DNA from: Tomocerus qinae
Taxonomy: Eukaryota; Arthropoda; Collembola; Entomobryomorpha; Tomoceridae
NCBI GenBank assembly: GCA_020055645.1
Contig: JAECZT010000007.1
Coordinates: forward strand, 1,275,900-1,339,899
Reading direction: 5' to 3'
Length of the DNA: 64,000 bases
Shown here: positions 1-41,432 of the stretch, piece by piece
Layout: the number at the start of each line of letters is the position of its first letter
How positions within the stretch are numbered: the stretch's first letter is position 1
Program-made: the position numbers and the translations under genes
The notes under the pieces: model-generated
Told to the model about the DNA's origin: nothing
Databases searched by the model: none
The model's input: the letters and a program-made list of their open reading frames with translations, nothing else

Positions 1-1689
1 ATAACTGATTCTGATAAACCACTGATTGGGAGATTTTTGATATAAATTTTAGACATTTTGATAGTTCCGATCAAAAAATATTTAATTTTTTGTTCAATTG
101 ATACTAATACTATATATACCTATAAGAAGATGAAAATCGTTTTAAGGACCTACAACCTTGCCATTCAATTGTAATGATAACTGATACCGACAAACCACTG
201 ATTGGGAGATTTTTAATAAAAGTTTCAGACATTTTGATGGTTCCGATCGAAAAATATTTAATTTTTTGTTTAATTGTTACGAATATTCTGCATACCTTTA
301 AGATGATTAAAAAGGTTTAGAGGACAGATAACCTTGCCATTGAATTGTAATGACAATAGATTCTGATAAACCACTGATTTGGAGATTTTTAATCAAACTT
401 TCAGACAAGTTTGATAGTTCCGATCGAAATTTTTTTAATTTTTTGTTCAAGTGTTCCGACAATTCTATATAACTTCAAGACGAAAATTATTTAAAGGACC
501 GATAGCCTTGGCATTCAATTGTAAAGATAACTGATTCTGATAAACCACTGATTGGGAGATTTTTAATATAAATTTCAGACATTTTGATAGTTCCGATCAA
601 AAAATATTTAATTTTTTGTTCAATTGATACTAATACTCTATATACCTATAAGATGATAAAAATGGTTTTAAGGCCCGATAACCTTGCCATTCAATTGTAA
701 TGATAACTGATACCGATAAACCACTGATTGGGAGATTTTTAATAAAAATTTCAGACATTTTGATGGTTCCGATCGAAAAATATTTAATTTTTTGTTCAAT
801 TGTTACGAATATTCTGCATACCTTTAAGATGATTAAAAAGGTTTAGAGGACAGATAACCTTGCCATTGAATTGTAATTACAATAGATTCTGATAAACCAC
901 TGATTGGGAGATTTTTAGTATAAATTTCAGACATTTTGATAGTTCCGATCGAAAATTTTTTACTTTTTTGTTCAAGTGTTCCGCATATTCTATATAACTT
1001 TAAGATGAAAAATATTTAAAGGACCGATAGCCTTGCGATTCAATTGTAATGATAATTAATTCTCATTAATCACTGATTGGGAGATTTTTAATAAAAGTTT
1101 CAGACATTTTTAAATTTCCGATCAAAAAATATTTAATGTTTTGTTCAATTGTTACTAATACACTATATACCTTTAAGAAGATGAAAAAGGTTTAGTGGAC
1201 CGATAACCATACCATTCAATTATAATGATAAATGATTCTGATAAACCACTGATTGGGAGATTTTTAATAAAAATTTCAGACATTTTGATAGTTCCGATGA
1301 GAAATATTAAATTTTTTGTTGAAGGGTTCCGAATGTTCTATATACATTTAAGATGATTTAAAAGGTTTAAAGGACCGATAACCATGCCATTCAATTGTAA
1401 TGACAATAGATTCTGATAAACCTTTGATTGAGAAATTTTTAATAAAAATTTCAGACATTTTGATAGTTCCGATCGAAAATGTTTTAATTTTTTGATCAAG
1501 TGTTCCGACAATTCTATATAACTTCAAGACGAAAATTATTTAAAGGACCGATAGCCTTGGCATTCAATTGTAATGATAACTGATTCTGATAAACCAATGA
1601 TTGGGAGATTTTTAATATAAATTTCAGACATTTTGATAGTTCCGATCAAAAAATATTTAATTTTTTATTCAACTGATGCTAATACTCTA
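1..1689 (+). repeat. Satellite array, forward orientation (about 175 bp monomer)
   Basis: AT-rich tandem monomers, recognisable by the recurring blocks CCTTGCCATTCAATTGTAAT, AAACCACTGATTGGGAG and TTTCAGACATTTTGATAGTT. The CCTTG block recurs at 156, 332, 506, 682 and 858, giving periods of 174-176 bp. Monomers differ from each other by several percent. The pattern from about 640 onward repeats beyond the BEL insertion with a period near 1,050 bp (6 monomers). No gene is visible. Confidence 0.95.
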
Positions 1690-1992
1690 TGTAGAAGTAT
1701 GCAAATGATAATAAATGTACTAGTTTTTACATTTTCAGAGTGTGTTTTTATTCATAATCTTGCTTGCTATTTATACAGATTTGCGAGTGTGAATTAAATT
1801 AGAACACCTAAAATAACTGGAACACTTAACCAAATAAATAAGTAAATACATGTAATTCTTATGGGATAATAAATAGAACGATTAACCAAAGCTTACAAAT
1901 GCTATTTAATTACTATATAAATAAAAGAAACGTAATCTTTACTAAGTGAAGTGGAATTGTAAATTGTCCTACATATAAATTATAAGTTAACA
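1690..1992 (-). repeat. BEL 3' LTR
   Basis: 303 bp, TGTAGAAGTATG...AAGTTAACA on the plus strand, base-for-base the same as 15230-15532. For the minus-strand element this is the downstream (3') LTR. The flanking CTCTA at 1685-1689 is one half of the target duplication. Confidence 0.95.
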
Positions 1993-2141: not shown

Positions 2142-3200
2142 TTATAGAGAGCATCGTTGAGTGAAGGCCGAGGAGAGTTGGGTTTGTTGTTTGTTTACTC
2201 GGTATTTCTTCCAAAATGCTTGTTGCACTGCGTGAAGTTTTGCCATTTTAGTCTTTTTATGAATAAAAAGTCTTAATGCTGCATACCTGTTAGCGTTAAC
2301 AATTGCTGATCCAGGCAGCTTTATTTCCTTTAGAAGCGTACGTCGGACTGACCAAAGTTTTTTCTTGGTAGAACGTAACTCTTCCTTCAATTGAGACTCA
2401 TTATTCTTGGTGGAACGTAGCTCTTCCTCCAGTTGTGACTCTTTATCGCTGGCTTCCTTCATTGTTTTTTCAAAGCGATTATGTTCTTGAAAGAAAGCCT
2501 GGCATCGTCTGTTGTGATCCAGAGCTTGGTCTTGAAGTTGTCCTCTCATTTCTTCTAATTGTTCTCTCAGGGCCATTGATTCATCACGTAAATAATTCCC
2601 GATTTGTTCTTTCTGCCAGTATTCCTTTTCATCATTATCTAGTGAACGTTGCAAATGGCAGTTCACGTCATTAAGTTGTTGAATTTCTTTATCCTTGAGC
2701 TCGTATTGGGCTTTCAGTTGCAAATTTTCCCTCTGATAGTTGAGAAATTTGGTAGCATACTCAATACCAATTTTTTCAGTATCCTTGTGGTGAATTCTTT
2801 CTTCAATCAGCTCTTTCTTGACAGCTTCCAATTCGGCAGTTAATCTGTTGTTTTTAATTTTTGCATTTCCATACTTTTTTATATGGAATTTGGATAAACG
2901 ATCGGCTTCTTTCTTTTCCTCCCTGACAGACCAAAATCGCTGTCGATAAGTTCTATTTTCACTTAGCAACTTCTCAGTTTCACTTTTGTGTTTATATGTG
3001 TTGTAAGCTAGTTGAAACTCAAGTTCTTCCATGCAAGTTGTTTTTACTCTTAATCTATGTTTTAGTTTTTTGTTTTTTTCTATCAACTCTTGACATACTT
3101 GGCCGTATGCCAGTAGGGATCCTCGACGATTTGAACGTGACATTATGCTTGGATAGTGATTATCGAACTGAATGAGGTAAACGTAACTAAATGATTTCAC
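2142..3200 (-). CDS. Coiled-coil accessory protein (BEL ORF3)
   Basis: A 352-codon frame between env and the 3' LTR. Most of the product (about residues 50-300) is charged, Glu/Lys/Gln-rich and low in proline and glycine, so a long alpha-helical coiled coil is likely; a near-duplicated 12-residue unit ending in LRSTKN/LRSTKK lies near residues 255-285. An internal Met at about residue 20 (MSRSNRRGS) is an alternative start. There is no signal peptide or membrane segment. I recognise no family. Standard BEL elements end with env, so this is an extra gene. Being open for more than 1 kb in an otherwise intact, recent element argues that it is expressed, probably from a spliced or subgenomic RNA. 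Possible roles (structural, RNA-binding, regulatory) are guesses. Confidence 0.7.
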   Translation of the reverse strand: MKSFSYVYLIQFDNHYPSIMSRSNRRGSLLAYGQVCQELIEKNKKLKHRLRVKTTCMEELEFQLAYNTYKHKSETEKLLSENRTYRQRFWSVREEKKEADRLSKFHIKKYGNAKIKNNRLTAELEAVKKELIEERIHHKDTEKIGIEYATKFLNYQRENLQLKAQYELKDKEIQQLNDVNCHLQRSLDNDEKEYWQKEQIGNYLRDESMALREQLEEMRGQLQDQALDHNRRCQAFFQEHNRFEKTMKEASDKESQLEEELRSTKNNESQLKEELRSTKKKLWSVRRTLLKEIKLPGSAIVNANRYAALRLFIHKKTKMAKLHAVQQAFWKKYRVNKQQTQLSSAFTQRCSL

Positions 3201-3305
3201 TAAATATCACTTATTCACTAAATTAGATTAAAGTTCACTAAATATCGATTTATTTCCTTGATTATTTCCAAAAGCAGAGTCGTAGGGGAATGACATCTTT
3301 GTAGA

Positions 3306-4124
3306 TTATGCTGTGGTTTCCTTTTTCTTCTTGGTAGGGATGCCAGTTTTTTTCTTCAAGGGTTGTTTTTTGGTTGGCCTCTTCTTGATGGTTTTTTTTA
3401 ATGAAGCTGGCGCAATCCGAAGTCGTTGATTTTTTACTTGTTCGTTTAGCCTTTTAATACATTGCCTGGCGTCGAGATGATTTTGCTTTTCTGTCATCCA
3501 GTCCCAGGTCACCCGATCACGATCCTGAGCGATTGTAATTTTTTCTTGCTGGATCTTATGATGCAAGTCACGCCAATACTCAACGTCACTTTGAAGCAGT
3601 TTTTCTCGGGCAGTTAATGTGACACCTGGCTCTAGCAATGGATGTCTGACTGGGATTATTGGAGAGTAAATTGTCTTCAACTGCTTCTCCGCTTCTTCTG
3701 CTCTTTTATGAACATCGTTGGCAAAGCGGTCCAATGAATCCAAATTTTGGGAACGTTGTTCTGCCGTATTTTTCCAATAATTGACTGCGTGCTCTGATTG
3801 TAGAATTTGTTGTCGCAATTCCAAATTTTCTTGAACTTGGAGATTGTACAATTCTTGATACCCGTTAGTTTTATCGGTTGCTTCAACAGTGGTCAAAGGT
3901 TGTAATGGTTCTGTCGAATTTGGTTCGTTTAATGATGGTTCAAGTATGGTGTCAATAAGAGAGGAAAAATCAGGAAAAAGATCTGGAAAGTCTAATTCTG
4001 GTTGTGGTAGTAGTTTATCCAGATCTGTCAAGGGGTAATCAAATTGTACCAAGGGGGGTGTGTTTAAGAACTTAGAAAGTTCTTCGGTTGCTCCAGTAAA
4101 GAAAGGAGTTAAAGGATCCATCAC
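3306..4124 (-). CDS. Acidic/coiled-coil/basic accessory protein (BEL ORF2)
   Basis: A 272-codon frame starting at ATG 4124 and ending 105 bp before the next accessory ORF. It has three visible parts: an acidic, Asp/Leu/Pro/Phe-rich N-terminus (about residues 1-85); a helical Gln/Glu-rich middle with coiled-coil character (about 90-150 and 180-230); and a strongly basic C-terminus (about 240-272, runs of KK and a KKRPTKK patch) that looks like a nuclear localisation or nucleic-acid-binding tail. Acidic region plus coiled coil plus basic tail is the layout of many transcriptional regulators and, by position after env, recalls retroviral regulatory genes. That function is inference; no family is recognised. 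The 230 bp between this gene and the end of env hold no ORF. Confidence 0.7.
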   Translation of the reverse strand: MMDPLTPFFTGATEELSKFLNTPPLVQFDYPLTDLDKLLPQPELDFPDLFPDFSSLIDTILEPSLNEPNSTEPLQPLTTVEATDKTNGYQELYNLQVQENLELRQQILQSEHAVNYWKNTAEQRSQNLDSLDRFANDVHKRAEEAEKQLKTIYSPIIPVRHPLLEPGVTLTAREKLLQSDVEYWRDLHHKIQQEKITIAQDRDRVTWDWMTEKQNHLDARQCIKRLNEQVKNQRLRIAPASLKKTIKKRPTKKQPLKKKTGIPTKKKKETTA

Positions 4125-4354: not shown

Positions 4355-7345
4355 TTAGATTACTTTCTTAACAAGCCTTTTAGCACACAAATAAATAGTG
4401 CCAATAATGCAAATTATTATTATTGCTATTCCTACAAGTTTTATAATCCAGGATGAAAAATACGACGCAAGTAAAGCAGGAATATGAAGTATGGCTCTTA
4501 AGTTGGCCCAGTTAAATCCTAAGTTGTTCCAATTAAAACCAAAGGACAATGGTCTTCCAGTTGCATTCGTATTTGTGGTTGTTGGTGGATTATATGAGGT
4601 GACTGACACTTCATCACGAACATCTACGTCGTCTAAGTAGTGTAAATGTCCAGTAATTGACAACGGAATGGTTGTCTTTGCACATTTAAAAGTACAATTA
4701 AGATGCGCTTCTGGTTCAGATAATTTCATGACTAACTGGTGTTTTGTAAATTGGTCTGTTAAAGGGACTGGGCTGAAGAATCCTACTTCGGGACATTCCA
4801 AAATTCCTATTTCATTTCCGGAGTCTACGCGACCCTCAAGGGAGAGAACGGCCCCAGTCAAACATCCTCCATAGCATCCTTCTAGCTTGATTAATGCAAT
4901 TGAGCAAGATGTATCTTGAACATCTTTGGTAATCTGAAGATTCTCAGTAGTAATTTGGAGCTCTAGTGCTGTAGATGATGACGACAGAAAGTTTATATTT
5001 TCTTTTTCCGAAATGAGCATTCCGTTTGCAATTTGTAGAGGCAGCCTATTTTGATTCATGACCTTCTCAGGGTCTACGAGGTCTGATATACAATGGATAC
5101 TGTTCGTTGATGAGATTACACGAACAAGATTTAGATTAGCAAAACAATTATGATTAATTATTTTAGCGTCTTGCTCTGATCCACATCTAATTTCACCAAT
5201 TGAACCAATATTTGTTTGTTCGTGGTCACCACAGACAACAACAGAAAACTGGTTGTTTCTGGAGATTAAACATTCCTCTAATAATGGAGTGTAGGGCGAG
5301 GAGACAGATATTAATGTGAAATCAATGCTTCCAATTTTAACAGGTATTCCAGCATGAAGAATGGTAGTGTTAGTTGTTGTTTGTTGGCCAAAGTGATGTG
5401 TGATTTTTACTTTTACACTATTTTTCCATTCATGACATTTCCAAACCTTGTACACCTGGTTTGTGGGGTTCTGAAGGGAAATACGAATAAACTTGCAATC
5501 CGATACAAGTGGCCATAGACAACCTCCACTTCTTATTGATTCGCAATAACTCCATCCGAGGTTTTTCTCTGTGGATTTAAATTCCTTAATTGTATCATTA
5601 AGACCAAATTTCTCACAGTGATCAGAATGACATAATGCTGAACTGTACAAGTTATAGCATTTTAATGAGGCTGAACATTGGGGTCTTGCTCTTGGTACAT
5701 AATACAATAGTTCCTTTTTGCATGTTAATGCTACTGTTTTCGTTTCAATTGTAATTGAACCAAGATCGTTGTTTTTTGAATCCAATATATGAAAACAAAC
5801 TTTCTGATCTAAAGCAGCGAGTGACAATCTTGTGTTAATTCGAATGGCACAGGTAGTCTTTCCGTCTGAAGAAAAATGACATTCTCTGGATTGTGCTGAG
5901 ATACTGGCGAAGTCGGAACAGTTTTCCCCTACAGTGAAGATGCTGAGTAGCAAAAGGAGCGTCAGAAACCTTGAGTTAGATATATATTCTCGTCTTCTAA
6001 TTCTCGATCTTCTGCTTTCTTGGTTTGTGGCTAGTGTCGTAGGACGATGAGGAGCCACTTCAAGTAAGGGAGTCCCACCATCTTCTTGGGACGCTCGTGG
6101 GATAGGTTTGGGTATGGTTCTCTTGCGTTTTGAGTTGATATATTGTATACATATACGTAGTGGCCAGGATACGCACTTCATTATTGTATATACAACTCTT
6201 GTTACTTGGATAATTAGAATAATTAGGGAACATGTTGCTATCCCAACTGCAAATATGATTACGTATTGGACATACGTGTAGCAAGATAAATTTCTCCATC
6301 TTTCCATACAGACGTGACAATTTACAAGTTGACATACTGATAATTTTGGACAAATTATCTGTCTTTCTGTTGCAAAGTCAAAATCGAGAAAATAAAGCTC
6401 TACGTTTATTTTCCCACTAGCAATTAGCATATGTTTAGAGAATTGTAGATTTGTTTCTGATGTCGTTGGTACGATGGATACAAAATTCGGGTTCTTCTGG
6501 GCTTTAATGTATTTAGCTACAATTCCAGGTGTGCTAATTTGGAGTCCAGTCATGGTGCATTCAATTGAGCATTTTGCGCACGGGTATGTAGTCTTTGCTC
6601 GGCTTAAATCTTCCTTTCTGGTAGGGAGCAACATATGTCCCCAGCACATAGGTGTTATGTTACCTTGATCCGTTACTAATTGATGAATGGCTGAAGAGGA
6701 ATTGTATTGACATGAACAATCAGGCTTGATTTCATTGGAGCATCCAATGTTGGCACAGAAGTGATGATCTCCTGCACACTGCTTGTTTTTGCATTTTTTC
6801 GGGTTACAATTTCCAACACAAGTGTATGATTCGAAAAATTCCTTTTTTGAATTTTGTTCTAGGTTCAGTTTAGATACTGGATAAAGGTTTCCATGATGAA
6901 TAATAACTGGGACGTTGTCATATTGTTCTGTAAAATGACTACAATGTTTAAGTATATAGTCCCCAACAGCACATAATGGTGATCTTAATTCATCTTGGTA
7001 CAGAGTAGCTGTATCTATTTCTGAATCCGATGATTGACATTCTAGTTCATCCAGATTGGTATGATTGAGGTTGGCACATTTTGATTTATTATTGGTAGAT
7101 ATACATGAACCTCCATCCGATGATACTAGTTTCCCTTCTCCACATGTAACATTTCGATGGCATATAGATCCATTGGATGTTACGTGAAGCCAAGAGATTG
7201 ATTGTGTACATCCTTCGATTTCATGATGAGTTGACCAGCTGATTTCGCAAGGTGGGGCCTTGGTGAATAGATTGGGATGTGGTTGGTAATCAGCCATTGC
7301 GGAACCACTTAATAATAGTATTATTGTTGTGGTGATACATAATTG
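4355..7345 (-). other. Envelope portion with two glycoprotein-like halves
   Basis: About residues 2430-3424. First half: signal-like segment ending GSAMA (about 2430-2447), a cysteine-rich ectodomain with several N-glycosylation sequons, a transmembrane helix (about 2785-2815) and a basic cytoplasmic stretch. Second half: a new signal-like helix (about 2880-2897), a second cysteine-rich ectodomain, a C-terminal transmembrane helix (about 3393-3416) and a short basic tail ending KRLVKKVI. The arrangement, and a GCYGGCLTGA motif near 3250, resemble bunyaviral/phleboviral Gn-Gc precursors, a source already proposed for envelopes of nematode BEL elements. That homology is my inference from layout and motif, not a search result. 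It would be made at the ER and cleaved by signal peptidase. Confidence 0.65.
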
Positions 7346-10300
7346 TGTAATTGTGGTGGAAGATCGTCTTTGTCCAAGTATTAATGCTTTATAAGCACTT
7401 CGGTATTGCTTATTTGCTACGGCATAAATAAGTACATTGGTCCATGATGAGGCCCATGCCAATAGTGCACTGGCTATATGTATAGCTCTTGCCACCTTTT
7501 CTTTTTCTGGGTCATACAGATTAAGGATGATCACTGGTTGGAAGTTTAGCAGGAATCCAAGAAATACAATGCATATCATTCTAAAAAGTTGGTTTTCTTC
7601 CTTATTTTTATCCTCATAACCAGTGATTGAACGGTTGAAGTGTGTGCCAACTTGACTACGTATTTTTCGTGTATACATATAAATTCGAGTGTAGCAGTAT
7701 ATTATTACGGCTGTAGGCAGACAAATGCCGCAAATCCAGATTGCCTTTTTTGGTGATCTTCCATTTTGGTCGGGTATGATGGAACAAGAAGCAGGATTAT
7801 TTGCCTTTGGACCTAATTTTCCCCAAATCCCGAGCGCAGGAGGTGTCACCATTAGAAAGCTTGAAATCCAGGTTGCTATGATCATGAGCCAAATACGACG
7901 TTTTGAAAACAGGTTCGGATACTTCCAATGATGAACAATGCAGACGTACCGATTAATAGATATCATGAGGATATTTGCCAAACCACATATTAAATTCCCA
8001 TATAAGAGCAGAGCATAGGTTTGACAGAGAAACTTGCCAAATATCCACGCGTCGTAATAATATCTAATGGCCGTAAACGGTAGTGTGATAGTGCTAAACA
8101 GCAAATCCGAGCAACATAAGCTCATGATAAGCCAATTGAATCTGTTGTGTTTTAAATGAGGAGTTTTGTTGATGGCAATTATCGTGATCGTGTTCCCCAG
8201 AAACCCAAGGATTGCAAACATGATGACACAATAAGCTACTGTTTTCGTCAATAAATTGGATCCTGATGACTTATTTCCAACTTCTTGGGCTGAGCTTGTT
8301 GGCAAGGAGGTCATCATGAGTACAGCCGAATATATCCATGGCCATACTGTTGTCCTTGTATATTCATTTTTATGACACCTTGGAGTTTCATCATTGATCA
8401 GTGGATTCTTTTTAGTCATTGTTGTTACAACATTTTGTAACGAATCCTTGGTTAGAGATGGTAGTTGTGGAGCGTCGAAATCATCTTCGTCTGGATTCGG
8501 CAACTTTGCCAACTTTGATATTGGACGGATGAACTCTTTTACAGTTTTTTGTAATTTACCCTTTTTTTCAAGATAGGTACTCTGGGTTTCAATGGTAGTG
8601 ACTCTTGTTAATCCATCTTTGGCGGGATGGACGTTTTTAATCCTTCCTAATCGCCATTCTAAAGGAGGTTGATTATCATCCATCACAAGGACCAGATCTC
8701 CCACTGCCAAATTTGGTTTTCTTTGTGTCCATTTGGTCCGTTTTTGCAAGGAGAGAATATACTCCTTCTCCCAACGTTTCCATATTTCTTGATGTCGACT
8801 CAGGATGCGCTGGTATTTATTTAAACGGTTGTCGTTTAGATGACTGACATCGTGTTCCGGGTTTGTATGAAGTGATGTTCCAATTAGAAAATGACCAGGA
8901 GTCAGTGCCTCAAGATCATTAGGATCGTTTGAAATGGGAGTGAGAGGTCTTGAATTCACAACACTTTCTATGAAGGTGGTTATGCTTTCAAATTCTTCCC
9001 ACGTGAATACATCAGTTGCAACAATCTTTTTTAAGTGGGTTTTGAACAATCGCACCATAATTTCCCAGACTCCTCCTTTATGGGGTGCAACCGGTGGATT
9101 AAATTGCCACTGTATCTTTTCAAATTCAATGTCTGGAAGTACTTTATTCCGCATGCGAATAGCAGTTGTCATTTGAGAATGAAATTCTTTCATCCGATTA
9201 TTCGCACCGACAAAGTTGGTCCCATTATCGGAATACATATGCGAGGGTCGTCCTCGCCGGGAGACAAAGCGACGAAATGCCAGTAAAAATCCATCGATGG
9301 TCATAGAAGAGACAATTTCCAAGTGTATGGCTCTGGTGCTCATACAAACAAATAAGGTTAGCCAAACCTTAAAATTTCCCTTCCTTCCAGAAAAGTTCTT
9401 CAGTTCAAAAGGTCCGGCCAAATCAACTCCTGTATGCAAAAACGGCCGAACGTCACTAAACCGAGCCGGGGGTAATTGACCCATTAACTGTGTTTCTGGT
9501 CTTGCCTTGTATCGAAAACACACGAGACATTTGTTAATTACGCTCTTAATTGTCTTGGCCGCATTAGGGATCCAATACATCTGGCGAATATGACTGTTGA
9601 TGGTTTGTTTTCCGCAGTGGGCTAGTTTTTTGTGAACGTCCAGGATCATTGCTTTTACTAATGGATGAACGGCTGGTAGTAAAATGGGATGTTTTGTATC
9701 ATATGGTAGATTGGAATTTTTTAAACGCCCTCCGACCCTAAAGATTCCGTCAGAATCTTTAAATAAATCCAGATTTCTGAATTGTTTACTTGACAATGCG
9801 GAATGTAGCTCGGAAAATCCTTGTGTTTGAATAAGTTTTGCTAGTGTGCGTTCGGCTTGGAGTAGTTCCAATGGGGTTAAGATAGCATTTCGTGATTTTG
9901 AAGAATGTGCAAATGCTCGTAGAATATATCCCAATACGTGAAGTGCACGAGTCCATGAAGAAATACAAGTCAGTCGATCTAATACATAGTTAGAGTCAGA
10001 CGTAGTGACCGCATGGATTTGGGATTTCTGCTCAGTGGCATTGACTTCATTATTACATGTAGAGGGTTGAAAAATGGGTACTGGATATTGAGGTTGTGAT
10101 AACCATCTGGGTCCATGCCACCACAATGGATGGTTTTTAAGTTCTTCAGGATCCAAACCTCTAGAAGCACAATCGCTGGGATTGTCTTCAGAGACAATAT
10201 GGTGCCATTGAGCCTTGTCAGTTAATTCGTGAATTTGAGTTATACGATTTGCCACGTATATTTTCCAGCGATGGGGCTCTGACCAAATCCAATTGAGAAC

Positions 10301-13300
10301 TATTGTCGAGTCGGTCCATAACCGGATTGCAGAATAATGGATGTCCCAAAGAGTCTTGACATGGTGCACTAAATTGGCCAGCAAAACTGCTCCTTGTAAC
10401 TCCAACCGGGGAATCGTAATGGTTTTAATGGGTGCAACTCTAGTTTTTGCTGCAATTAGGTTGGTCACAACCTTGTCCTTATGGATACCTCTCAGATACA
10501 GTGCTGCACCGTAAGCCATGCTACTGGCATCACAGAACCCGTGTAATTCCCACGTATAATTGTCATCATATTGGAGAGATCGAGGAATACGAATTTCCTC
10601 AATCCGTTTGAGGTTGGCAGCATAATGTAACCATTTGTCTAAAATAGGTTGCGGAATCTGATCGTCCCAATCTACTTTGACCATCCATATAGATTGCATT
10701 AATATCTTTGCTTTGGTAATGACTGGAGCGAGTAAACCCAAAGGATCAAAAACTTTGGAAATGTCTGAAAGAAGAGATCTTTTCGTATGATTCTTGTAGG
10801 GGTCCAGATTTACTGAGAAAGTAAAATGGTCCTGGAAGGAGTGCCAGTGCAGTCCAAGAGTTTTCACCGTGGCAGAATCATCAATTGTCATTGGAGTCTG
10901 CGCAATTTCTTTTAAATGGGAAGGTAAGGATTGCAAAAGTTGCGGGGAATTGCTGCTCCATTTTCGCAGCTCAAAATTAGCTGTTGACAACATTTGTATA
11001 AGTTCATCCTTTACTTTCATTGCTGTGGCCAGGTTGGAATAACTGGCCATAAAATCGTCAACATAAAAGTGCACTTTCACTGCTTGTGCAGCTAATGGAA
11101 AATTGATACCTTCGTCAATAGCCAGTTGACGCAATGTTCGACATGCGAGAAACGGCGAAGAAGCTAAACCGAATGGTATAGTTTTCAATTTAAAATGTTG
11201 GAGAACATCGGATGTTGATTTTCTCCATACGATTCTGACAAAATCTTGCTCCTGTGGATTTACCAGGATTTGTCGGTACATTTTTGCTATATCTGCAACT
11301 ACCGCTATTGGTTTCAAACGAAAAAAGAGCAGTTGGTCGAACAAGTCCGGTTGAATGGTCGGACCGGGTGCCAAAATTGAGTTAAGGGACACGCCAGAGG
11401 ATGTCTTGGCAGATGCATCGAACACAATGCGTACTTTAGTGGTGGTCGAGTCGGGCTTAAATACAGCGTGGTGGGGAATATAATAGTGTGGAGGACGTCC
11501 ATGCGGATCTTCACGAGGTATTATTTCCATCTGTCCGCTTGACAAATATTCCTCCAATTGCTTGTTATATTCCTTTTTCAACTCTGGAAATTGTTTGAGT
11601 CTTGCTTCTGTAGAATACCACCTTCGACTGGCCATAGCGAGAGAGAAACCAAGTTTTTCTGTGCTTTCAATGAATGGTAAGCGTACCTGATATTGACCAC
11701 TGGGCAAACGTTGAGTGTTTCGGACATAGTGATCTTCACAGAATTTATCTAGTTTTGTTAAAGGCTGTTTCGAAGGGAGTTCCTCAATTTGCCAGAACTT
11801 TTCCATATTAAATGATTCAAAAGGAATAGGAACTATATCCTTTCGTTTAATGGCCGTGCAACAAAGTTTGGTGGTCTCTTCTTTTGTTTCGCCTAAAATA
11901 ACATATCCCAATGTTGTGAGATAGGCACTAGGAGTTCCTGAAGGTCCTCTGATTTTTCTGGCTTGCATAATCTTATCGTAAATTGGAGAACCCAACAGAA
12001 CTTCTATTGGCTGACTTTTATTGAACGTCGGATCAGCCAATGGAAGATCGATGAGATGAGTCATTTCCTTGGCATCAAATGATTGATTAGGTAAAGGAGA
12101 AGTAATTTCTGGTAATATGTAGGCAATGACACGGTATATGTTGTCAGGGTGGGTGGTGGACTGGATATAGAACATTGTTTTGCCTAAAGACGGTATAGTT
12201 TTTCCACCAGCCACAGTGAATTTCTTATTTTTTCCAAAGGTTTCCAAATGAAGTTGTTTGGCAGCTTTTTCTGTTATAAATGAATTTTGTGCACCGCAAT
12301 CCAAAAGACAGCGGACTTGGTGAATTTTTCCTTTAGAGCTTTGTAAATTGACAATGGCTGTAGGCAGGAGGCCTATTTCATCTTCTTCATCTTGCGGTAT
12401 GATTTTTGAATGGTTGATTGCTGGAGGTGGTTGTGTAGGAGATTTACTTTGACGAGGACTCGGCGACCTGGGGGGGTCAGCACTCATATGTAGTGACGTA
12501 TGGTGGCGTCGGCCGCACACCATGCACGAGAATTTACTGGTACAGTTAGTAACGCGATGCGCAGATAGGCAATTAAAGCAGCGCCGCGCAGTTTTGACCC
12601 AGTCGAATTTTTTCTTGGAGGGCCAATCTTTATACATAGGACAGCCATGAATTCGGTGATTGTGGTGGTGACAAACAGGGCATGGTTTTGCGTCCGAAAA
12701 AGGTGAAGGCTGACGCTTCTTGCCAGATACGGGTGTTGGAGACTTATTTCTGGGCACGGTTAGATCATCGCGTGAGCGAGCCCCTCTTTGTGGAGAACCA
12801 GTAAAATGGACCCTTTTTTTATTATTGGCCGCTTTCTTCTGACGTTTTGACCGCCTACCCTTTTTGGAGCCGTCAGTACTGGAGACGCTGAGAAGACTGG
12901 CGTTGCTGCAATGGCTGTTACCAGAGTCTGAATAATTATCTGTCGTTTCTCCGTCTGTGTCACACGTAGCTAACAACACACGTGGTTCACGGCGCGACTG
13001 ACGGAATCTGGTGCGTCGGGGCTGATCAGAATTTTGTTTGACGGCACTCCGAATTTGGTCGTTCAGACCTATCGCTTTAGCTTCTTTATCCAAAAAAGCC
13101 ATGCAAGTTTCGAAAGTTGGCATTTCATTCTTCTTAAGGGACCTATCAAATTCCCTTAGAGTTTTATTATCCAATCGACCCAAAATGAAATGCACCAGGA
13201 AGATGTGATGTAAAGGTACGGTGGTCTCAATCATTGACAACTGTGCCTCAGTTGTACGAGCAGTGTCCATGATCTTATTCAAACCATCTTCAGTTTTTAT

Positions 13301-14629
13301 CATGAGAGCCGGTAAATCAAGTAATGGGCGTAGGGCAGCGTGGGCCCTTTCGCGAGGGGAGTCGTATCTGGCAGTCAACCTTTCCCACGCGATGACCCAG
13401 TTGTCATCTGTCACTTGCAAATCCTTATTTGAGTTTTTCCGAGTTCCATCTTTAAGAGCATCGTTCAAAAGTCGTAGTTTTTCGGCTGGAGAGAAACCAG
13501 TTTGATTGATAACGACGGATTCGAAATTATTTTTGAACGTTACCCAGTCATTATGATATCCAGAAAATCTTGGGAGACTGAATTTTGGGATTTTCAATTT
13601 GTTGACTGTTCCAGTAGACGTAGGAGTGAGTTCCTTGGCTATGGTCATTATGTCCCGTTGGACTTCACCAAAGCAAGTAGCGAGAACTTGGTAATAAGCT
13701 ACTGCTCTAGCTTGAGGAGTGATACCTTGTGCATCAGGCAGTAAATCTTCATAATATCGGTAACAGTTGGTTTGTTGTCTATCCAGAGAAGTTTTTAAGC
13801 GCTTCACGTCATCAAGGTAAATTTCGGCGTCAATAGCCGTCATTAAGTTAGTTTTGTCTTTATGCGCCTGAATGGCCTCATCAAGGCTATCAATTTTGGC
13901 CGCTATGGCGGCATGATTACCCTGATGGTCCTGACGTAGGTCTTCGGCTTCCATCATGGCATATCCTAATACCTGTGGCGGTTGTCCAAGAGGGGGAGGA
14001 GGCGGTCCTCGATACGGCGAGCCGGGGGGGGATGGAGAATCCGGAGGAGACGGTGGTGGAGGTGGATCGCCAGATGCACCGGTGTTCCCGGAGCGAGAAG
14101 CAGTGGATCGACGTTGGTGGTCACTGCTACCGTTGCTATTTCTTTGTCCAGAAGAATCCCCAGGCTGAGAAGGGTTAGCTGAGTGAGAAGAAGACCCTGA
14201 GGTCCCGGCCACCTGTTGTGCGTGAGGATCAATGGTAAAAAAACGGTCGGTGAAACGGCTTATGAAAGAGGTGGGCGGAGGATCTTGTGAAGCGATCGGT
14301 GTTTCTTGATCAGACAAAATGGGCACGGTCCGTGTAGATGAGGTGGACGTGGAGGGTTTGGAATCGGTAGGGGGGAGGTCACTGGTGGTTGACGCTGGGG
14401 GTTGACCGGAGGAGGACGATGGTTTTGGTGGGGGAACTGGGGGTATCTTCGCGAATTGACGTTGAATGGCAGTAAGGGTGTCGTCAAAGGATAACTTGGC
14501 GGCTCGTCTGCGGGCTGTAACGTATGGGTCGTGGGGAGGGACCCAAGGCTCAGGGGTTCCTGCTTTTCCTTGTTGTCTAGTGAAGGGTCTACTATCTGGT
14601 GATTTCTCTTCATTTTGAGAGTCACTCAT
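4355..14629 (-). CDS. BEL Gag-Pol-GPCR-Env polyprotein
   Basis: One uninterrupted frame of 3,424 residues from ATG 14629. In order: Pro/Ser-rich N-terminus (1-230); DUF1759-like Gag region (about 340-520); zinc knuckles (about 650-715, CPVC and CFNC motifs); aspartic protease with LLDCGAQ near 775; BEL reverse transcriptase (about 1040-1260, YVDD at 1189-1192); RNase H-like region (GFCDAS near 1364); integrase with an HHCC zinc site (about 1665-1705) and D, D, E near 1736, 1800 and 1856; a DUF5641-like tail (about 1930-2010); a signal-like segment (about 2098-2115); a seven-transmembrane receptor (about 2117-2430); and a two-part cysteine-rich envelope (about 2430-3424). A single gag-pol-env frame is known for some BEL elements such as roo. 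The receptor between integrase and envelope is, as far as I know, not standard. The protease reads D-C-G rather than D-S/T-G; BEL proteases vary at this position. Confidence 0.93.
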   Translation of the reverse strand: MSDSQNEEKSPDSRPFTRQQGKAGTPEPWVPPHDPYVTARRRAAKLSFDDTLTAIQRQFAKIPPVPPPKPSSSSGQPPASTTSDLPPTDSKPSTSTSSTRTVPILSDQETPIASQDPPPTSFISRFTDRFFTIDPHAQQVAGTSGSSSHSANPSQPGDSSGQRNSNGSSDHQRRSTASRSGNTGASGDPPPPPSPPDSPSPPGSPYRGPPPPPLGQPPQVLGYAMMEAEDLRQDHQGNHAAIAAKIDSLDEAIQAHKDKTNLMTAIDAEIYLDDVKRLKTSLDRQQTNCYRYYEDLLPDAQGITPQARAVAYYQVLATCFGEVQRDIMTIAKELTPTSTGTVNKLKIPKFSLPRFSGYHNDWVTFKNNFESVVINQTGFSPAEKLRLLNDALKDGTRKNSNKDLQVTDDNWVIAWERLTARYDSPRERAHAALRPLLDLPALMIKTEDGLNKIMDTARTTEAQLSMIETTVPLHHIFLVHFILGRLDNKTLREFDRSLKKNEMPTFETCMAFLDKEAKAIGLNDQIRSAVKQNSDQPRRTRFRQSRREPRVLLATCDTDGETTDNYSDSGNSHCSNASLLSVSSTDGSKKGRRSKRQKKAANNKKRVHFTGSPQRGARSRDDLTVPRNKSPTPVSGKKRQPSPFSDAKPCPVCHHHNHRIHGCPMYKDWPSKKKFDWVKTARRCFNCLSAHRVTNCTSKFSCMVCGRRHHTSLHMSADPPRSPSPRQSKSPTQPPPAINHSKIIPQDEEDEIGLLPTAIVNLQSSKGKIHQVRCLLDCGAQNSFITEKAAKQLHLETFGKNKKFTVAGGKTIPSLGKTMFYIQSTTHPDNIYRVIAYILPEITSPLPNQSFDAKEMTHLIDLPLADPTFNKSQPIEVLLGSPIYDKIMQARKIRGPSGTPSAYLTTLGYVILGETKEETTKLCCTAIKRKDIVPIPFESFNMEKFWQIEELPSKQPLTKLDKFCEDHYVRNTQRLPSGQYQVRLPFIESTEKLGFSLAMASRRWYSTEARLKQFPELKKEYNKQLEEYLSSGQMEIIPREDPHGRPPHYYIPHHAVFKPDSTTTKVRIVFDASAKTSSGVSLNSILAPGPTIQPDLFDQLLFFRLKPIAVVADIAKMYRQILVNPQEQDFVRIVWRKSTSDVLQHFKLKTIPFGLASSPFLACRTLRQLAIDEGINFPLAAQAVKVHFYVDDFMASYSNLATAMKVKDELIQMLSTANFELRKWSSNSPQLLQSLPSHLKEIAQTPMTIDDSATVKTLGLHWHSFQDHFTFSVNLDPYKNHTKRSLLSDISKVFDPLGLLAPVITKAKILMQSIWMVKVDWDDQIPQPILDKWLHYAANLKRIEEIRIPRSLQYDDNYTWELHGFCDASSMAYGAALYLRGIHKDKVVTNLIAAKTRVAPIKTITIPRLELQGAVLLANLVHHVKTLWDIHYSAIRLWTDSTIVLNWIWSEPHRWKIYVANRITQIHELTDKAQWHHIVSEDNPSDCASRGLDPEELKNHPLWWHGPRWLSQPQYPVPIFQPSTCNNEVNATEQKSQIHAVTTSDSNYVLDRLTCISSWTRALHVLGYILRAFAHSSKSRNAILTPLELLQAERTLAKLIQTQGFSELHSALSSKQFRNLDLFKDSDGIFRVGGRLKNSNLPYDTKHPILLPAVHPLVKAMILDVHKKLAHCGKQTINSHIRQMYWIPNAAKTIKSVINKCLVCFRYKARPETQLMGQLPPARFSDVRPFLHTGVDLAGPFELKNFSGRKGNFKVWLTLFVCMSTRAIHLEIVSSMTIDGFLLAFRRFVSRRGRPSHMYSDNGTNFVGANNRMKEFHSQMTTAIRMRNKVLPDIEFEKIQWQFNPPVAPHKGGVWEIMVRLFKTHLKKIVATDVFTWEEFESITTFIESVVNSRPLTPISNDPNDLEALTPGHFLIGTSLHTNPEHDVSHLNDNRLNKYQRILSRHQEIWKRWEKEYILSLQKRTKWTQRKPNLAVGDLVLVMDDNQPPLEWRLGRIKNVHPAKDGLTRVTTIETQSTYLEKKGKLQKTVKEFIRPISKLAKLPNPDEDDFDAPQLPSLTKDSLQNVVTTMTKKNPLINDETPRCHKNEYTRTTVWPWIYSAVLMMTSLPTSSAQEVGNKSSGSNLLTKTVAYCVIMFAILGFLGNTITIIAINKTPHLKHNRFNWLIMSLCCSDLLFSTITLPFTAIRYYYDAWIFGKFLCQTYALLLYGNLICGLANILMISINRYVCIVHHWKYPNLFSKRRIWLMIIATWISSFLMVTPPALGIWGKLGPKANNPASCSIIPDQNGRSPKKAIWICGICLPTAVIIYCYTRIYMYTRKIRSQVGTHFNRSITGYEDKNKEENQLFRMICIVFLGFLLNFQPVIILNLYDPEKEKVARAIHIASALLAWASSWTNVLIYAVANKQYRSAYKALILGQRRSSTTITQLCITTTIILLLSGSAMADYQPHPNLFTKAPPCEISWSTHHEIEGCTQSISWLHVTSNGSICHRNVTCGEGKLVSSDGGSCISTNNKSKCANLNHTNLDELECQSSDSEIDTATLYQDELRSPLCAVGDYILKHCSHFTEQYDNVPVIIHHGNLYPVSKLNLEQNSKKEFFESYTCVGNCNPKKCKNKQCAGDHHFCANIGCSNEIKPDCSCQYNSSSAIHQLVTDQGNITPMCWGHMLLPTRKEDLSRAKTTYPCAKCSIECTMTGLQISTPGIVAKYIKAQKNPNFVSIVPTTSETNLQFSKHMLIASGKINVELYFLDFDFATERQIICPKLSVCQLVNCHVCMERWRNLSCYTYVQYVIIFAVGIATCSLIILIIQVTRVVYTIMKCVSWPLRICIQYINSKRKRTIPKPIPRASQEDGGTPLLEVAPHRPTTLATNQESRRSRIRRREYISNSRFLTLLLLLSIFTVGENCSDFASISAQSRECHFSSDGKTTCAIRINTRLSLAALDQKVCFHILDSKNNDLGSITIETKTVALTCKKELLYYVPRARPQCSASLKCYNLYSSALCHSDHCEKFGLNDTIKEFKSTEKNLGWSYCESIRSGGCLWPLVSDCKFIRISLQNPTNQVYKVWKCHEWKNSVKVKITHHFGQQTTTNTTILHAGIPVKIGSIDFTLISVSSPYTPLLEECLISRNNQFSVVVCGDHEQTNIGSIGEIRCGSEQDAKIINHNCFANLNLVRVISSTNSIHCISDLVDPEKVMNQNRLPLQIANGMLISEKENINFLSSSSTALELQITTENLQITKDVQDTSCSIALIKLEGCYGGCLTGAVLSLEGRVDSGNEIGILECPEVGFFSPVPLTDQFTKHQLVMKLSEPEAHLNCTFKCAKTTIPLSITGHLHYLDDVDVRDEVSVTSYNPPTTTNTNATGRPLSFGFNWNNLGFNWANLRAILHIPALLASYFSSWIIKLVGIAIIIICIIGTIYLCAKRLVKKVI
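7345..8330 (-). other. Captured rhodopsin-class GPCR domain, Tre1/Moody-like, within the BEL frame
   Basis: About residues 2100-2430. A signal-like segment (WIYSAVLMMTSLPTSSA) is followed by a short ectodomain with an NKSS glycosylation site and seven hydrophobic helices. Class A landmarks are present: GN in TM1 (near 2144), SD in TM2, a Trp-x-Phe-Gly loop then Cys before TM3, NRY at 2226-2228 at the end of TM3, Trp in TM4, a Cys in extracellular loop 2, Pro in TM5, FQP in TM6 and NVLIY at 2398-2402 in TM7, then NKQYRSAY. NRY in place of DRY and the TM7 tail are features I associate with the insect Tre1/Moody receptors. The domain is complete and free of stops. It is followed directly by another hydrophobic segment that serves as the envelope's signal. 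The ligand is unknown. Confidence 0.85.
8440..11560 (-). other. Reverse transcriptase, RNase H and integrase portion of the BEL polyprotein
   Basis: Contains RT motifs RIVFDASAKT, VVADIAKMYRQI, IPFGLASSPF and HFYVDDFMASY, an RNase H-like stretch (ELHGFCDASSMAYGA), the integrase zinc finger (HKKLAHCGKQT...CLVC) and core motifs TGVDLAGPF, MYSDNGTNF and KGGVWE. The DUF5641-like C-terminal region (LVLVMDDNQPPLEWRLGRI) lies near 8670-8690. All catalytic residues I looked for are present, so this copy may be able to copy and integrate itself. Confidence 0.9.
12290..14629 (-). other. Gag and protease portion of the BEL polyprotein
   Basis: The first 780 or so residues. The N-terminal 230 are low-complexity Pro/Ser/Gly/Thr (for example an RGPPPPPLGQPP run near 205). 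Next comes a helical region containing IPKFSLPRFSGYHNDW, the hallmark of the DUF1759 Gag family of BEL/Pao. A basic Arg/Lys-rich segment (about 540-640) precedes two cysteine/histidine clusters that should bind zinc and viral RNA. The protease domain (DUF1758-like) starts at about residue 760. The product should form the particle and cut the polyprotein in the cytoplasm. Confidence 0.85.
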
Positions 14630-15229: not shown

Positions 15230-15532
15230 TGTAGAAGTATGCAAATGATAATAAATGTACTAGTTTTTACATTTTCAGAGTGTGTTTTTATTCATAATCT
15301 TGCTTGCTATTTATACAGATTTGCGAGTGTGAATTAAATTAGAACACCTAAAATAACTGGAACACTTAACCAAATAAATAAGTAAATACATGTAATTCTT
15401 ATGGGATAATAAATAGAACGATTAACCAAAGCTTACAAATGCTATTTAATTACTATATAAATAAAAGAAACGTAATCTTTACTAAGTGAAGTGGAATTGT
15501 AAATTGTCCTACATATAAATTATAAGTTAACA
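15230..15532 (-). repeat. BEL 5' LTR
   Basis: 303 bp identical to 1690-1992. It should hold the promoter for the minus-strand genome. CTCTA (15533-15537) is the other half of the target duplication. Confidence 0.95.
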
Positions 15533-18514
15533 CTCTATGTACCTATAAAATGATCAAAATGGTTTTAAGGACCGATAACCTTGCTATTCAATTGTAATGA
15601 TAACTGATACCGATAAACCACTGATTGGGAGATTTTTAATAAAAATTTCAGACATTTTGATGGTTCCGATCGAAAAATATTTAATTTTTTGTTCAATTGT
15701 TACGAATATTCTGCATACCTTTAAGATGATTAAAAAGGTTTAGAGGACAGATAACCTTGCCATTGAATTGTAATTACAATAGATTCTGATAAACCACTGA
15801 TTGGGAGATTTTTAGTAAAAATTTCAGACATTTTGATAGTTCCGATCGAAAATTTTTTACTTTTTTGTTCAAGTGTTCCGCATATTCTATATAACTTTAA
15901 GATGAAAAATATTTAAAGGACCGATAGCCTTGCGATTCAATTGTAATGATAATTAATTCTCATTAATCACTGATTGGGAGATTTTTAATAAAAGTTTCAG
16001 ACATTTTTAAATTTCCGATCAAAAAATATTTAATGTTTTGTTCAATTGTTACTAATACACTATATACCTTTAAGAAGATGAAAAAGGTTTAGTGGACCGA
16101 TAACCATACCATTCAATTATAATGATAAATGATTCTGATAAACCACTGATTGGGAGATTTTTAATAAAAATTTCAGACATTTTGATAGTTCCGATGAGAA
16201 ATATTAAATTTTTTGTTGAAGGGTTCCGAATGTTCTATATACATTTAAGATGATTTAAAAGGTTTAAAGGACCGATAACCATGCCATTCAATTGTAATGA
16301 CAATAGATTCTGATAAACCTTTGATTGAGAAATTTTTAATAAAAATTTCAGACATTTTGATAGTTCCGATCGAAAATGTTTTAATTTTTTGATCAAGTGT
16401 TCCGACAATTCTATATAACTTCAAGACGAAAATTATTTAAAGGACCGATAGCCTTGGCATTCAATTGTAATGATAACTGATTCTGATAAACCAATGATTG
16501 GGAGATTTTTAATATAAATTTCAGACATTTTGATAGTTCCGATCAAAAAATATTTAATTTTTTATTCAACTGATGCTAATACTCTATATACCTATAAAAT
16601 GATCAAAATGGTTTAGAGGACAGATAACCTTGCCATTGAATTGTAATTACAATAGATTCTGATAAACCACTGATTGGGAGATTTTTAGTGAAAATTTCAG
16701 ACATTTTGATAGTTTCGATCGAAAATTTTTTACTTTTTTGTTCAAGTGTTCCGCATATTCTATATAACTTTAAGATGAAAAATATTTAAAGGACCGATAG
16801 CCTTGCGATTCAATTGTAATGATAATTAATTCTCATTAATCACTGATCGGGAGATTTTTAATAAAAGTTTCAGACATTTTTAAATTTCCGATCAAAAAAT
16901 ATTTAATGTTTTGTTCAATTGTTACTAATAAACTATATACCTTTAAGAAGATGAAAAAGGTTTAGTGGACCGATAACCATGCCATTCAATTGTAATGATA
17001 ATTGATTCTGATAAACCACTGATTGGGAGATTTTTAATAAAAATTTCAGACATTTTTAAACTTCTGATTAAAAAATATTTAATTTTTTGTTCAATTGTTA
17101 CTAATACTCTATATACCTTTAAGATGATTAAAAAGGTTTAAAGGACCGATAACTTTGCCATTTAATTGTAATGACAATAGATTCATATAAACCACTGATT
17201 GGGAGATTTTTAATAAAGATTTCAGACATTTTGATAGTTCCGATCGAAAATTTTTTACTTTTTTGTTCAAGTGTTCCGCATATTCTATATAACTTTAAGA
17301 TGAAAAATGTTTAAAGGACCGATAGCCTTGCGGTTCAATTGTAATGATATATAATTCTCATAAATCACTGATTGGGAGATTTTTAATAAAATTTTCAGAC
17401 ATTTTTAAATTTCCGATCAAAAAATATTTAATGTTTTGTTCAATTGTTACTAATACCTTATATACCTTTAAGAAGATGAAAAAGGTTTAGTGGACCGATA
17501 ACCATGCCATTCAATTGTAATGATAAATGATTCTGATAAACCACTGATTGGGAGATTTTTAATAAAAATTTCAGACATTTTGATAGTTCCGATCGAGAAA
17601 TATTAAATTTTTTGTTGAAGGGTTCCGAATGTTCTATATACCTTTAAGATGATTTAAAAGGTTTAAAGGACCGATAACCATGCCATTCAATTGTAACGAC
17701 AATAGATTCTGATAAACCACTGATTGGTAGATTTTTAATAAAAATTTCAGATATTTTGATAGTTCCGATCGAAAATTTTTTAATTTTTTGTTCAAGTGTT
17801 TCGAATATTTAATATAACTTTAAGATGAAAAATATTTAAAGGACCGATAGCCTTGGCATTCAATTGTAATGATAACTGATTCTGATAAACCAATGATTGG
17901 GAGATTTTTAATAAAAGTTTCAGACATTTTGATGGTTCCGATCGAAAAATATTTTATTTTTTGTTCAATTGTTACAAATATTCTGCATACCTTTAAGATG
18001 ATAAAAAAGGTTTAGAGGACAGATAACCTTGCCATTGAATTGTAATGACAATAGATTCTGATAAACCACTGATTGAGAAATTTTTAATAAAAATTTCAGA
18101 CATTTTGATAGTTCCGATCGAAAATGTTTTAATTTTTTGATCAAGTGTTCCGAATATTCTATATAACTTTAGGATGAAAAATATTTAAAGGACCGATACC
18201 CTTGCCATTCAATTGTAATGATAATTGATTCTGATAAACCACTGATTGGGAGATTTTTAATAAAAATTTCAGACATTTTTAAACTTCTGATTAAAAAATA
18301 TTTAATTTTTTGTTCAATTGTTACTAATACTCTATATACCTTTAAGATGATTAAAAAGGTTTAAAGGACCGATAATTTTGCCATTCAATTGTAATGACAA
18401 TAGATTCTGATAAACCACTGATTTGGAGATTTTTAATAAAACTTTCAGACAAGTTTGATAGTTCCGATCGAAATTTTTTTAATTTTTTGTTCAAGTGTTC
18501 CGACAACTTTATAT
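15533..18514 (+). repeat. Satellite array, forward orientation
   Basis: Continues the monomers of 1-1689 (about 175 bp). The stretch beginning at 15533 repeats the pattern seen from about 640. Markers such as the variant ATTCTCATTAATCACTGAT (1057, 15956, 16832) show a 6-monomer and then a 5-monomer spacing once the BEL insertion is subtracted. It ends at the insertion site of a non-LTR element, with target sequence CGACAACTTTATAT at 18501-18514. Confidence 0.93.
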
Positions 18515-19400: not shown

Positions 19401-19418
19401 TGGTGGCCTGACCGAATC
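19401..19418 (+). promoter_or_regulatory. Candidate primer-binding site of the gypsy element
   Basis: TGGTGGCCTGACCGAATC begins directly after the LTR with the TGG expected to pair with a tRNA CCA end. I could not match it to a specific tRNA. It is followed (19419-19480) by a pyrimidine-rich leader with repeated CGGTTTT units. Confidence 0.45.
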
Positions 19419-20108: not shown

Positions 20109-20150
<42 letters not shown>

Positions 20151-41408: not shown

Positions 41409-41432
41409 ATTAATATTAGTGTAATGTTAGTG

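What the first reader, a model, noticed from the sequence alone, without database searches (positions are those of the whole stretch)
7345..8330. Intact Tre1/Moody-like GPCR fused in frame between integrase and envelope of a BEL retrotransposon
Seen: a full seven-helix class A receptor with GN, SD, Cys-TM3, NRY (2226-2228), Trp-TM4, TM5 Pro, FQP and NVLIY motifs lies inside one 3,424-residue retroelement frame with no stop. Known: NRY is characteristic of the Tre1/Moody receptors of insects, and Tre1 guides germ-cell migration in Drosophila; large DNA viruses capture GPCRs, but I know of no described BEL element with one. Inference: the element captured a host receptor and kept it, possibly to alter the behaviour of infected cells or steer them toward the germ line.
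Basis: partly seen in the sequence, partly recalled or inferred. Interest (0 to 1): 0.96.

Follow-up and report, generated by a model that had tools for sequence, protein, structure and literature searches.

The report
Captured Tre1-type receptor in retrovirus-like element
In an insect genome, a family of retrovirus-like jumping genes carries a complete cell-surface receptor, taken long ago from a host gene of the Tre1 type (which guides germ cells in flies) and kept intact by selection between its integrase and its virus-type envelope.

Summary
One 3,424-codon frame holds Gag-side domains, protease, RT, integrase and DUF5641, then a full class A GPCR, then phlebovirus-type Gn/Gc. Identical LTRs and a 5-bp target duplication within satellite DNA mark a young insertion. 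It is no chimera: 20 places in the same genome match at least 275 of the receptor's 329 residues, and integrase-DUF5641-receptor-Gn order recurs in 15 of 20 fetched loci. Element receptors form one clade (100/100), inside Tre1 and apart from Moody, while the genome keeps its own intron-bearing Tre1. Between subfamilies synonymous sites are saturated but 17-20% of nonsynonymous sites differ, so selection kept it. Fourteen of 16 tabulated class A positions are unchanged in 7 of 7 copies; the NPxxY proline is valine in 7 of 7. Of 28 near-full Gc places, 9 have no receptor match upstream; for the one read, loss is somewhat favoured over primitive absence. I found no paper on a GPCR in an LTR element. 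Steering infected cells or reaching the germ line is plausible but untested.

The parts
1690..1992 (-). 3' LTR, 303 nt
   Evidence: identical to the other LTR; the exact repeat is 305 nt, and TG...CA ends are read inside it; 100% pair again
15230..15532 (-). 5' LTR, 303 nt
1685..1689 (.). target-site duplication CTCTA, left copy
   Evidence: the right copy is 15533-15537
15533..15537 (.). target-site duplication CTCTA, right copy
4355..14629 (-). single open frame, 3,424 codons
13127..13567 (-). DUF1759 (Gag side; that it belongs to Gag is recalled)
   Evidence: Pfam E 2.8e-20
12182..12322 (-). aspartyl protease
   Evidence: Pfam Asp_protease_2 E 9.4e-7, over its cut-off
10964..11308 (-). reverse transcriptase (weak)
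   Evidence: RVT_1 E 1.7e-5, 25.1 bits, under the cut-off of 29.6
10307..10786 (-). Peptidase_A17 (Pao retrotransposon)
   Evidence: Pfam E 1.6e-54
9500..9661 (-). integrase zinc-binding H2C2
   Evidence: Pfam E 9.8e-10; the rve core was not listed for this piece
8507..8818 (-). DUF5641
   Evidence: Pfam in two adjoining pieces, E 4.2e-14 and 5.9e-6
8288..8353 (-). signal-peptide-like stretch before the receptor (read by eye)
   Evidence: it did not pass the hydropathy threshold of 1.3, while the corresponding stretch of L051 just did (1.32)
7345..8332 (-). class A GPCR, Tre1-derived
7946..7954 (-). NRY motif
   Evidence: residues 127-129 of the receptor piece
7295..7351 (-). second hydrophobic, signal-like stretch before Gn
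   Evidence: hydropathy 1.64
6074..7105 (-). Phlebovirus_G1 (Gn)-like glycoprotein
   Evidence: Pfam E 3.5e-18
4952..5920 (-). Phlebovirus_G2 (Gc) fusion domain
   Evidence: Pfam E 1.4e-63, full profile
3306..4124 (-). 3' ORF, 272 aa, no Pfam match, conserved weakly in other copies
   Evidence: tblastn match in 15 of 20 other loci
2142..3200 (-). 3' ORF, 352 aa, no Pfam match over cut-off
   Evidence: matched only in L046, but most fetched loci end before it

Best explanation
A BEL/Pao endogenous virus with a phlebovirus-type Gn/Gc envelope captured an intronless host Tre1-type coding sequence once, long ago, between DUF5641 and Gn, and its descendants have kept the receptor under purifying selection (shown). 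The receptor would be made in the same membrane polyprotein as the envelope: a signal-like stretch puts its N-terminus outside, seven helices bring the chain back to the cytosol, and a second signal-like stretch starts Gn; signal peptidase would free both (inferred from order and topology). The freed receptor most likely reaches the surface of the cell that expresses the element and signals through the kept NRY face much as Tre1 does, changing polarity, adhesion or movement of that cell and so helping cell-to-cell or soma-to-germline spread (inferred). The NPxxY proline, lost in 7 of 7 copies, suggests altered or biased signalling (inferred).
For: One open frame with 7tm_1 over the full profile; LTR pair and TSD; 20 places with at least 275 of 329 residues; same order in 15 of 20 loci; one clade inside Tre1; host Tre1 with introns still present; pN 0.17-0.20 against saturated pS 0.80-0.87, and omega 0.11 in the young pair L035-L031 against 0.38 for the adjoining linker; 33 of 51 variable sites among 7 near copies at codon position 3; 14 of 16 tabulated class A positions kept in 7 of 7; a pol-less derivative at 4 of 20 loci kept receptor and Gn/Gc. 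In flies NRY and NPIIY serve separable roles of Tre1 (PMC6122984, passage).
Against: No expression, cleavage, surface or signalling evidence. An env-bearing lineage in the same genome has no receptor, and 9 of 28 near-full Gc places show none upstream, so it is dispensable there. ICL2 and ICL3 have little identity to Venturia Tre1 (20% and 13%), so coupling may differ. The first signal-like stretch is read by eye and failed the hydropathy threshold. The NPxxY proline is lost. The SP-to-receptor linker and the receptor's N-terminus diverge fast. Six of 20 loci have a receptor broken by stops.
Confidence: 0.45

Rival explanations
1. The receptor is a particle or entry part: it rides in the virion membrane beside Gn/Gc and helps to find, attach to or sense target cells, instead of signalling in the producer cell.
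For: It sits directly before Gn in the same frame; ECL2 is among the better-kept segments (74-85% within the 65-72% group and the window copy); the pol-less derivative keeps receptor and Gn/Gc together.
Against: Residues of the G-protein side (NRY, Y5.58, Y7.53, acid at 6.30) are kept in 7 of 7 copies, which a passive tether would not need; an env-bearing group does without it.
Confidence: 0.2
2. The receptor fills a structural place: a membrane segment with an odd number of helices ahead of Gn, comparable in position to the membrane protein that precedes Gn in bunyavirus precursors (recalled), with no signalling of its own.
For: In the receptor-less L051 the same place holds two signal-like stretches with a short stub and one helix between them.
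Against: A place-holder would not keep 14 of 16 class A positions or show omega 0.11.
Confidence: 0.15
3. Decoy or interference: the receptor soaks up a host ligand or G proteins, or blocks competing elements, to change host signalling or superinfection.
For: Loss of the NPxxY proline in 7 of 7 copies could hamper normal activation.
Against: The NRY motif and the TM6 acid are kept; no direct evidence either way.
Confidence: 0.12
4. Artefact or passenger: an assembly chimera, or a chance capture that drifts without function.
For: Nine of 28 near-full Gc places have no receptor upstream; several copies are broken.
Against: LTR pair, TSD and open frame; 20 places; the same edges in 15 of 20 loci; saturated pS with low pN.
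Confidence: 0.02

Closest known systems
Atlas virus of a hookworm and Cer13-type belpaoviruses (PMC9094657; passages read)
   Same: BEL/Pao element with one Gag-Pol-Env frame (2,828 residues in Atlas) and a phlebovirus-like GN-GC envelope, identical LTRs
   Different: Nematode hosts; the term GPCR does not occur in that paper's main text; here a 7TM receptor lies between integrase/DUF5641 and Gn, and two more ORFs follow the envelope
Tre1 (trapped in endoderm-1) of insects; relative Moody; GPR84 in vertebrates
   Same: Nearest public sequences, about 40% identity; same clade as Tre1; NRY kept; GPR84 is the best PDB match by sequence
   Different: Valine for the NPxxY proline and E for D at 6.30 in 7 of 7 copies against 21 of 21 homologs; no introns; part of a polyprotein; ICL2 and ICL3 diverged
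Captured GPCRs of poxviruses, herpesviruses and giant viruses (BFVD matches)
   Same: Class A GPCR carried by a virus or virus-like element; fold match
   Different: DNA viruses; 10-21% identity; none of the named matches is from a retroelement
Crocodilian ERVs that captured KIT-ligand and nectin3 (PMC4299795; passages)
   Same: LTR element with a captured host membrane-related coding sequence under purifying selection
   Different: Vertebrate ERVs; a ligand and an Ig-domain adhesion protein, not a GPCR; nectin3 replaced env
LTR elements with extra ORFs: bdelloid rotifers (PMC5408684; abstract) and Drosophila sORF2 elements (PMC11952523; abstract)
   Same: LTR elements gain extra ORFs with enzymatic or membrane roles; sORF2 serves soma-to-germline transfer
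   Different: No GPCR in either abstract

Membership tests
Belpaoviridae (BEL/Pao) | Pao-type Peptidase_A17 and integrase in one pol frame | tested here: met
   Peptidase_A17 E 1.6e-54, Integrase_H2C2 E 9.8e-10, DUF5641
Belpaoviridae (BEL/Pao) | LTRs with a short (5-bp) target duplication | tested here: met
   303-nt identical LTRs, CTCTA on both sides
Belpaoviridae (BEL/Pao) | place in an RT tree | not tested
   no RT tree with named BEL elements was built; RVT_1 match is under its cut-off
BEL element with phlebovirus-type Env (Atlas kind) | Gn/Gc-like glycoproteins at the end of the Gag-Pol-Env frame | tested here: met
   Phlebovirus_G1 E 3.5e-18 and G2 E 1.4e-63 in the same frame
BEL element with phlebovirus-type Env (Atlas kind) | Env acts as a fusion protein | not testable with these tools
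   needs experiments
Class A (rhodopsin) GPCR | 7tm_1 profile over its curated cut-off, full length | tested here: met
   142.5 bits against 30.5, positions 1-260 of 260
Class A (rhodopsin) GPCR | seven helices and the usual conserved positions | tested here: met
   model with seven helices and helix 8; 14 of 16 tabulated positions invariant in 7 of 7 element copies and shared with the homologs, 6.48 as in Tre1, 7.50 changed
Tre1 receptor | groups with Tre1 apart from Moody | tested here: met
   99/94 for Tre1 plus element copies, Moody and a third host paralog outside
Tre1 receptor | NRY motif | tested here: met
   7 of 7 copies
Tre1 receptor | NPIIY-type motif in TM7 | tested here: not met
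   NV[L/M]IY: valine at 7.50 in 7 of 7 copies; hence called Tre1-derived, not Tre1
Tre1 receptor | role in migration of germ cells or hemocytes | not testable with these tools
   needs experiments

The most novel reading that the evidence does not exclude
The first retroelement with a signalling GPCR of its own: a belpaovirus that took over the germ-cell guidance receptor Tre1 and uses it, in a form altered at NPxxY, to move or repolarise infected cells or to reach the germ line. The neighbouring Gypsy-type element in the same window has a receptor-like 3' ORF too, so LTR elements of this insect may have recruited host receptors more than once.
Probability: 0.33. Interest if true: 0.97.

Novelty: new variant of a known kind. 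Interest (0 to 1): 0.92.

Why it matters
Captured GPCRs are known from large DNA viruses (named matches). A retroelement that has kept one under selection through several subfamilies would be a new way for such an element to act on its host cell. It makes a long-standing question testable: do infectious insect retroelements use host guidance receptors to get into the germ line? The lost NPxxY proline beside a kept NRY is also a natural experiment on the two arms of Tre1 signalling.

Tried and rejected
Assembly chimera: rejected.

Pol-less copies L032, L033, L034 and L036 as reverse-transcribed spliced RNA: rejected. The four share one junction; one side follows an AG, but the other side has no GT donor. 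Their 5' parts form one clade (100/99) while L037 falls among their 3' parts, so a single deletion spread and then recombined.

Separate captures by the 44% group and the 65-72% group: rejected by the clade and by the shared V7.50 and E6.30.

Donor: sister to the host's own Tre1 (AU p 0.106) or to the Ceutorhynchus protein (p 0.364): neither shown nor rejected.

L051 as primitively receptor-less: disfavoured by integrase-identity quartets, largest sum with 4 of 4 outgroups (identities). This rests on rounded identities from queries of different length, without resampling; no outgroup letters could be fetched, and midpoint-rooted Gc, Gn and DUF5641 trees do not agree on L051. A search with the Gc of L051 did not complete.

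Polyproteins with this receptor elsewhere: none scored among 1,185 candidates (lengths about 972-3094 aa, so 3,400-aa predictions would be missed). IMG/VR: none confirmed with integrase or receptor.

Species: a nuclear COX1 copy matches nothing above 88%, and the named hits in the 120 listed are a hydrophilid beetle and bot flies, so 'insect' is as far as I go.

Papers: ten searches ran; none listed a paper on a GPCR in an LTR element. One search was about Tre1 motifs only, and one search returned no paper. The library holds open-access papers only.

Full report
What is there. The frame 4355..14629 (-) is open for 3,424 codons. Scanned in four pieces, Pfam gives DUF1759 and aspartyl protease; RVT_1 (under its cut-off), Peptidase_A17, integrase H2C2 and DUF5641; then 7tm_1 at E 2.2e-41 over the whole profile; then Phlebovirus_G1 and G2. 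Identical 303-nt LTRs at 1690-1992 and 15230-15532 are bounded by CTCTA on both sides. Arrays of a 173-176-bp satellite lie on both sides of the insertion. An LTR query finds 8 places in the genome: the two here at 100%, the other six at 77-97%. This copy is therefore young.

The receptor. The model has seven helices, helix 8 and an ECL2 hairpin (mean pLDDT 77.4). By fold the first PDB matches are SSTR1, GPR84 and the mu-opioid receptor; by sequence GPR84 (E 3.4e-29). Nearest public proteins are an unnamed Ceutorhynchus protein and Tre1 of Venturia canescens, both 40% identical; Tre1 of Phymastichus, unnamed metagenome proteins, Timema proteins and Moody follow (30 proteins). In alignment A1 (7 element copies, 21 homologs) 16 class A positions were tabulated. 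Fourteen are the same in 7 of 7 copies and in the homologs, apart from one gap at 1.50. Residue 6.48 is F in 7 of 7 copies and in the 9 Tre1-type homologs, and Y in the 12 others. At 7.50 the copies have V (7 of 7) where the homologs have P (21 of 21). At the acid of TM6, which I number 6.30, the copies have E (7 of 7) and the homologs D (21 of 21). Position numbers are my assignment. In fly Tre1 a bridge between R3.50 and a TM6 aspartate was modelled (PMC3848830, passages). Against close likeness: ICL2 and ICL3 of the window copy are only 20% and 13% identical to Venturia Tre1.

Copies. The receptor query gives 77 places at E <= 1e-3 in the 334-Mb genome of the window, host receptors included; 20 of them, the window copy among these, cover at least 275 of 329 residues. 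Twenty loci of 8.7-9.0 kb were fetched around other copies. The receptor is in 20 of 20. Integrase and DUF5641 upstream with Gn downstream are in 15 of 20; one of these (L039) has only 23 residues of Gc and L040 has broken Gc. L032, L033, L034 and L036 share a deletion from before RT into DUF5641 and keep receptor, Gn and Gc; L047 is a receptor fragment alone. Over 329 codons the receptor has no stop in 14 of 20 loci, though L043 among them has a frame-shifted stretch; L041, L042, L044, L045, L046 and L047 have stops. Receptor and Gc report one open frame of equal length at seven places (3,424, 3,472, 2,933, 1,838, 1,521, 1,326 and 1,299 aa); in the last (L041) the receptor is interrupted by an insert.

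Origin. Element receptors form one clade (100/100) in both trees. With three host genes added and Moody as outgroup they lie inside the Tre1 group (99/94), on a stem of 2.2 changes per column, so the capture is old and the donor unresolved (AU tests). Long branches are flagged by the program. The genome keeps a Tre1 gene at C4:13.265 Mb in four matched blocks, 51-56% identical to Venturia Tre1. The captured form is continuous, as expected if a spliced host mRNA was copied (inferred). Host Moody and a third paralog rest on two exons each.

Selection. Nei-Gojobori counts: between the window copy and L031, L035, L037, L038 and L040 the receptor has pN 0.17-0.20 and pS 0.80-0.87 (saturated, so no omega). 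Against the same kind of copies integrase has pN 0.14-0.16, Gc 0.23 and Gn 0.28-0.30; the 58-residue linker before the receptor has pN 0.41-0.45 and omega 0.24-0.51. In the young pair L035-L031 omega is 0.11 for the receptor, 0.07 for Gc, 0.03 for the RT/A17 piece and 0.38 for the linker. Against the 44% group the receptor has pN 0.38-0.41, like Gc (0.40) and above integrase (0.30). Among 7 near copies 51 variable sites fall 11, 7 and 33 on codon positions 1, 2 and 3. Within the window copy, L035 and L038, TM6 (91%), ICL2 (80-90%) and ECL2 (74-85%) are well kept; the N-terminus (7-53%) and the signal-like stretch (38-56%) are not.

Relatives without it. Of 59 Gc places 28 are near full length; 19 have a receptor within 5 kb upstream and 9 do not (receptor places used: 27 of 77). 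Only one of the nine was read: L051, open frame 3,108, has no receptor match between DUF5641 and Gn. In its place are a signal-like stretch, a short stub, one helix and a second signal-like stretch. Integrase identities make 'L051 first' the worst of three arrangements with 4 of 4 outgroups. With a single origin of the receptor, that favours loss in L051. Support is modest, and the trees do not settle it.

How it may work. Shown: one frame, receptor before Gn, conserved coupling residues, selection. Read by eye or inferred: a signal-like stretch before the receptor (it failed the hydropathy threshold) and a second before Gn (it passed). Seven helices between them suit N-out receptor and Gn-out topology, and signal peptidase would part them. 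In flies the NRY arm of Tre1 works with Wunen in germ-cell migration and the NPIIY arm in Rho1-dependent repolarisation, as told in PMC6122984 (passage; the primary paper is not held). The element keeps the first and changes the second. Transfer of LTR elements from soma to germ line in the Drosophila ovary is reported (abstract of PMC11952523). That makes germ-line steering plausible; nothing here tests it.

What is known. Atlas virus is a BEL element with one Gag-Pol-Env frame and a phlebovirus-like Env; 'GPCR' does not occur in its paper's main text (passages). Crocodilian ERVs captured KIT-ligand and nectin3 (passages). Ten paper searches listed no GPCR in an LTR element (see Tried and rejected). 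I file it as a BEL element with phlebovirus-type Env and a Tre1-derived receptor; it is not a Tre1 by the NPIIY test.

Noticed in passing
window 19031-30311 (+): A Gypsy-type LTR element (pol 23004-26882; LTRs of 370 nt, 100% identical) has a 3' ORF at 28167-29009 (280 aa) with hydrophobic helices and a helix-bearing frame after it (28897-29292). A part of it matches Pfam 7tm_2 (E 0.014) and 7tm_4 (E 0.0024), both under their cut-offs; no PDB match. Two more copies lie at C1:53.23 Mb (98%, open frame 452 aa) and C1:53.57 Mb (94%); weaker matches of 30-45% elsewhere look like host exons. By eye it resembles a Methuselah-like receptor (recalled). Whether those copies sit in the same element did not complete..
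   Followed up: partly
L032, L033, L034, L036: A pol-less derivative of the element: RT, integrase and most of DUF5641 deleted, the protease-side frame joined to receptor and Gn/Gc (open frame 1,838 aa in L034), at four places; presumably moved in trans (inferred)..
   Followed up: yes
window 2142-4124 (-): Two further ORFs follow the envelope (272 and 352 aa), rich in charged, coiled-coil-like sequence (by eye), with no Pfam family over cut-off; the first has weak relatives in 15 of 20 other loci.
   Followed up: partly
L051 (C1:78029600-78033099): Receptor-less relative with a short single-helix stub between two signal-like stretches, where the receptor lies in the others; near-identical integrase copies nearby suggest a young lineage.
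   Followed up: partly
window 36985-42918 (-): A non-LTR retroelement with endonuclease, RT and RNase H in one ORF of 1,228 aa, beside 22-bp tandem arrays at 34788-35719 and 36339-36841.
   Followed up: no
window 1-1690, 15534-18503, 30927-34780, 43016-43387, 45381-64000: Arrays of a 172-176-bp satellite with a 345-349-bp higher period take up much of the window, which suggests a centromeric or pericentromeric region (inferred).
   Followed up: no
G000:C1:36670928-36672268: A COX1 copy, open under the invertebrate mitochondrial code, lies inside a 140-Mb contig: a nuclear mitochondrial insertion or an assembly join.
   Followed up: no
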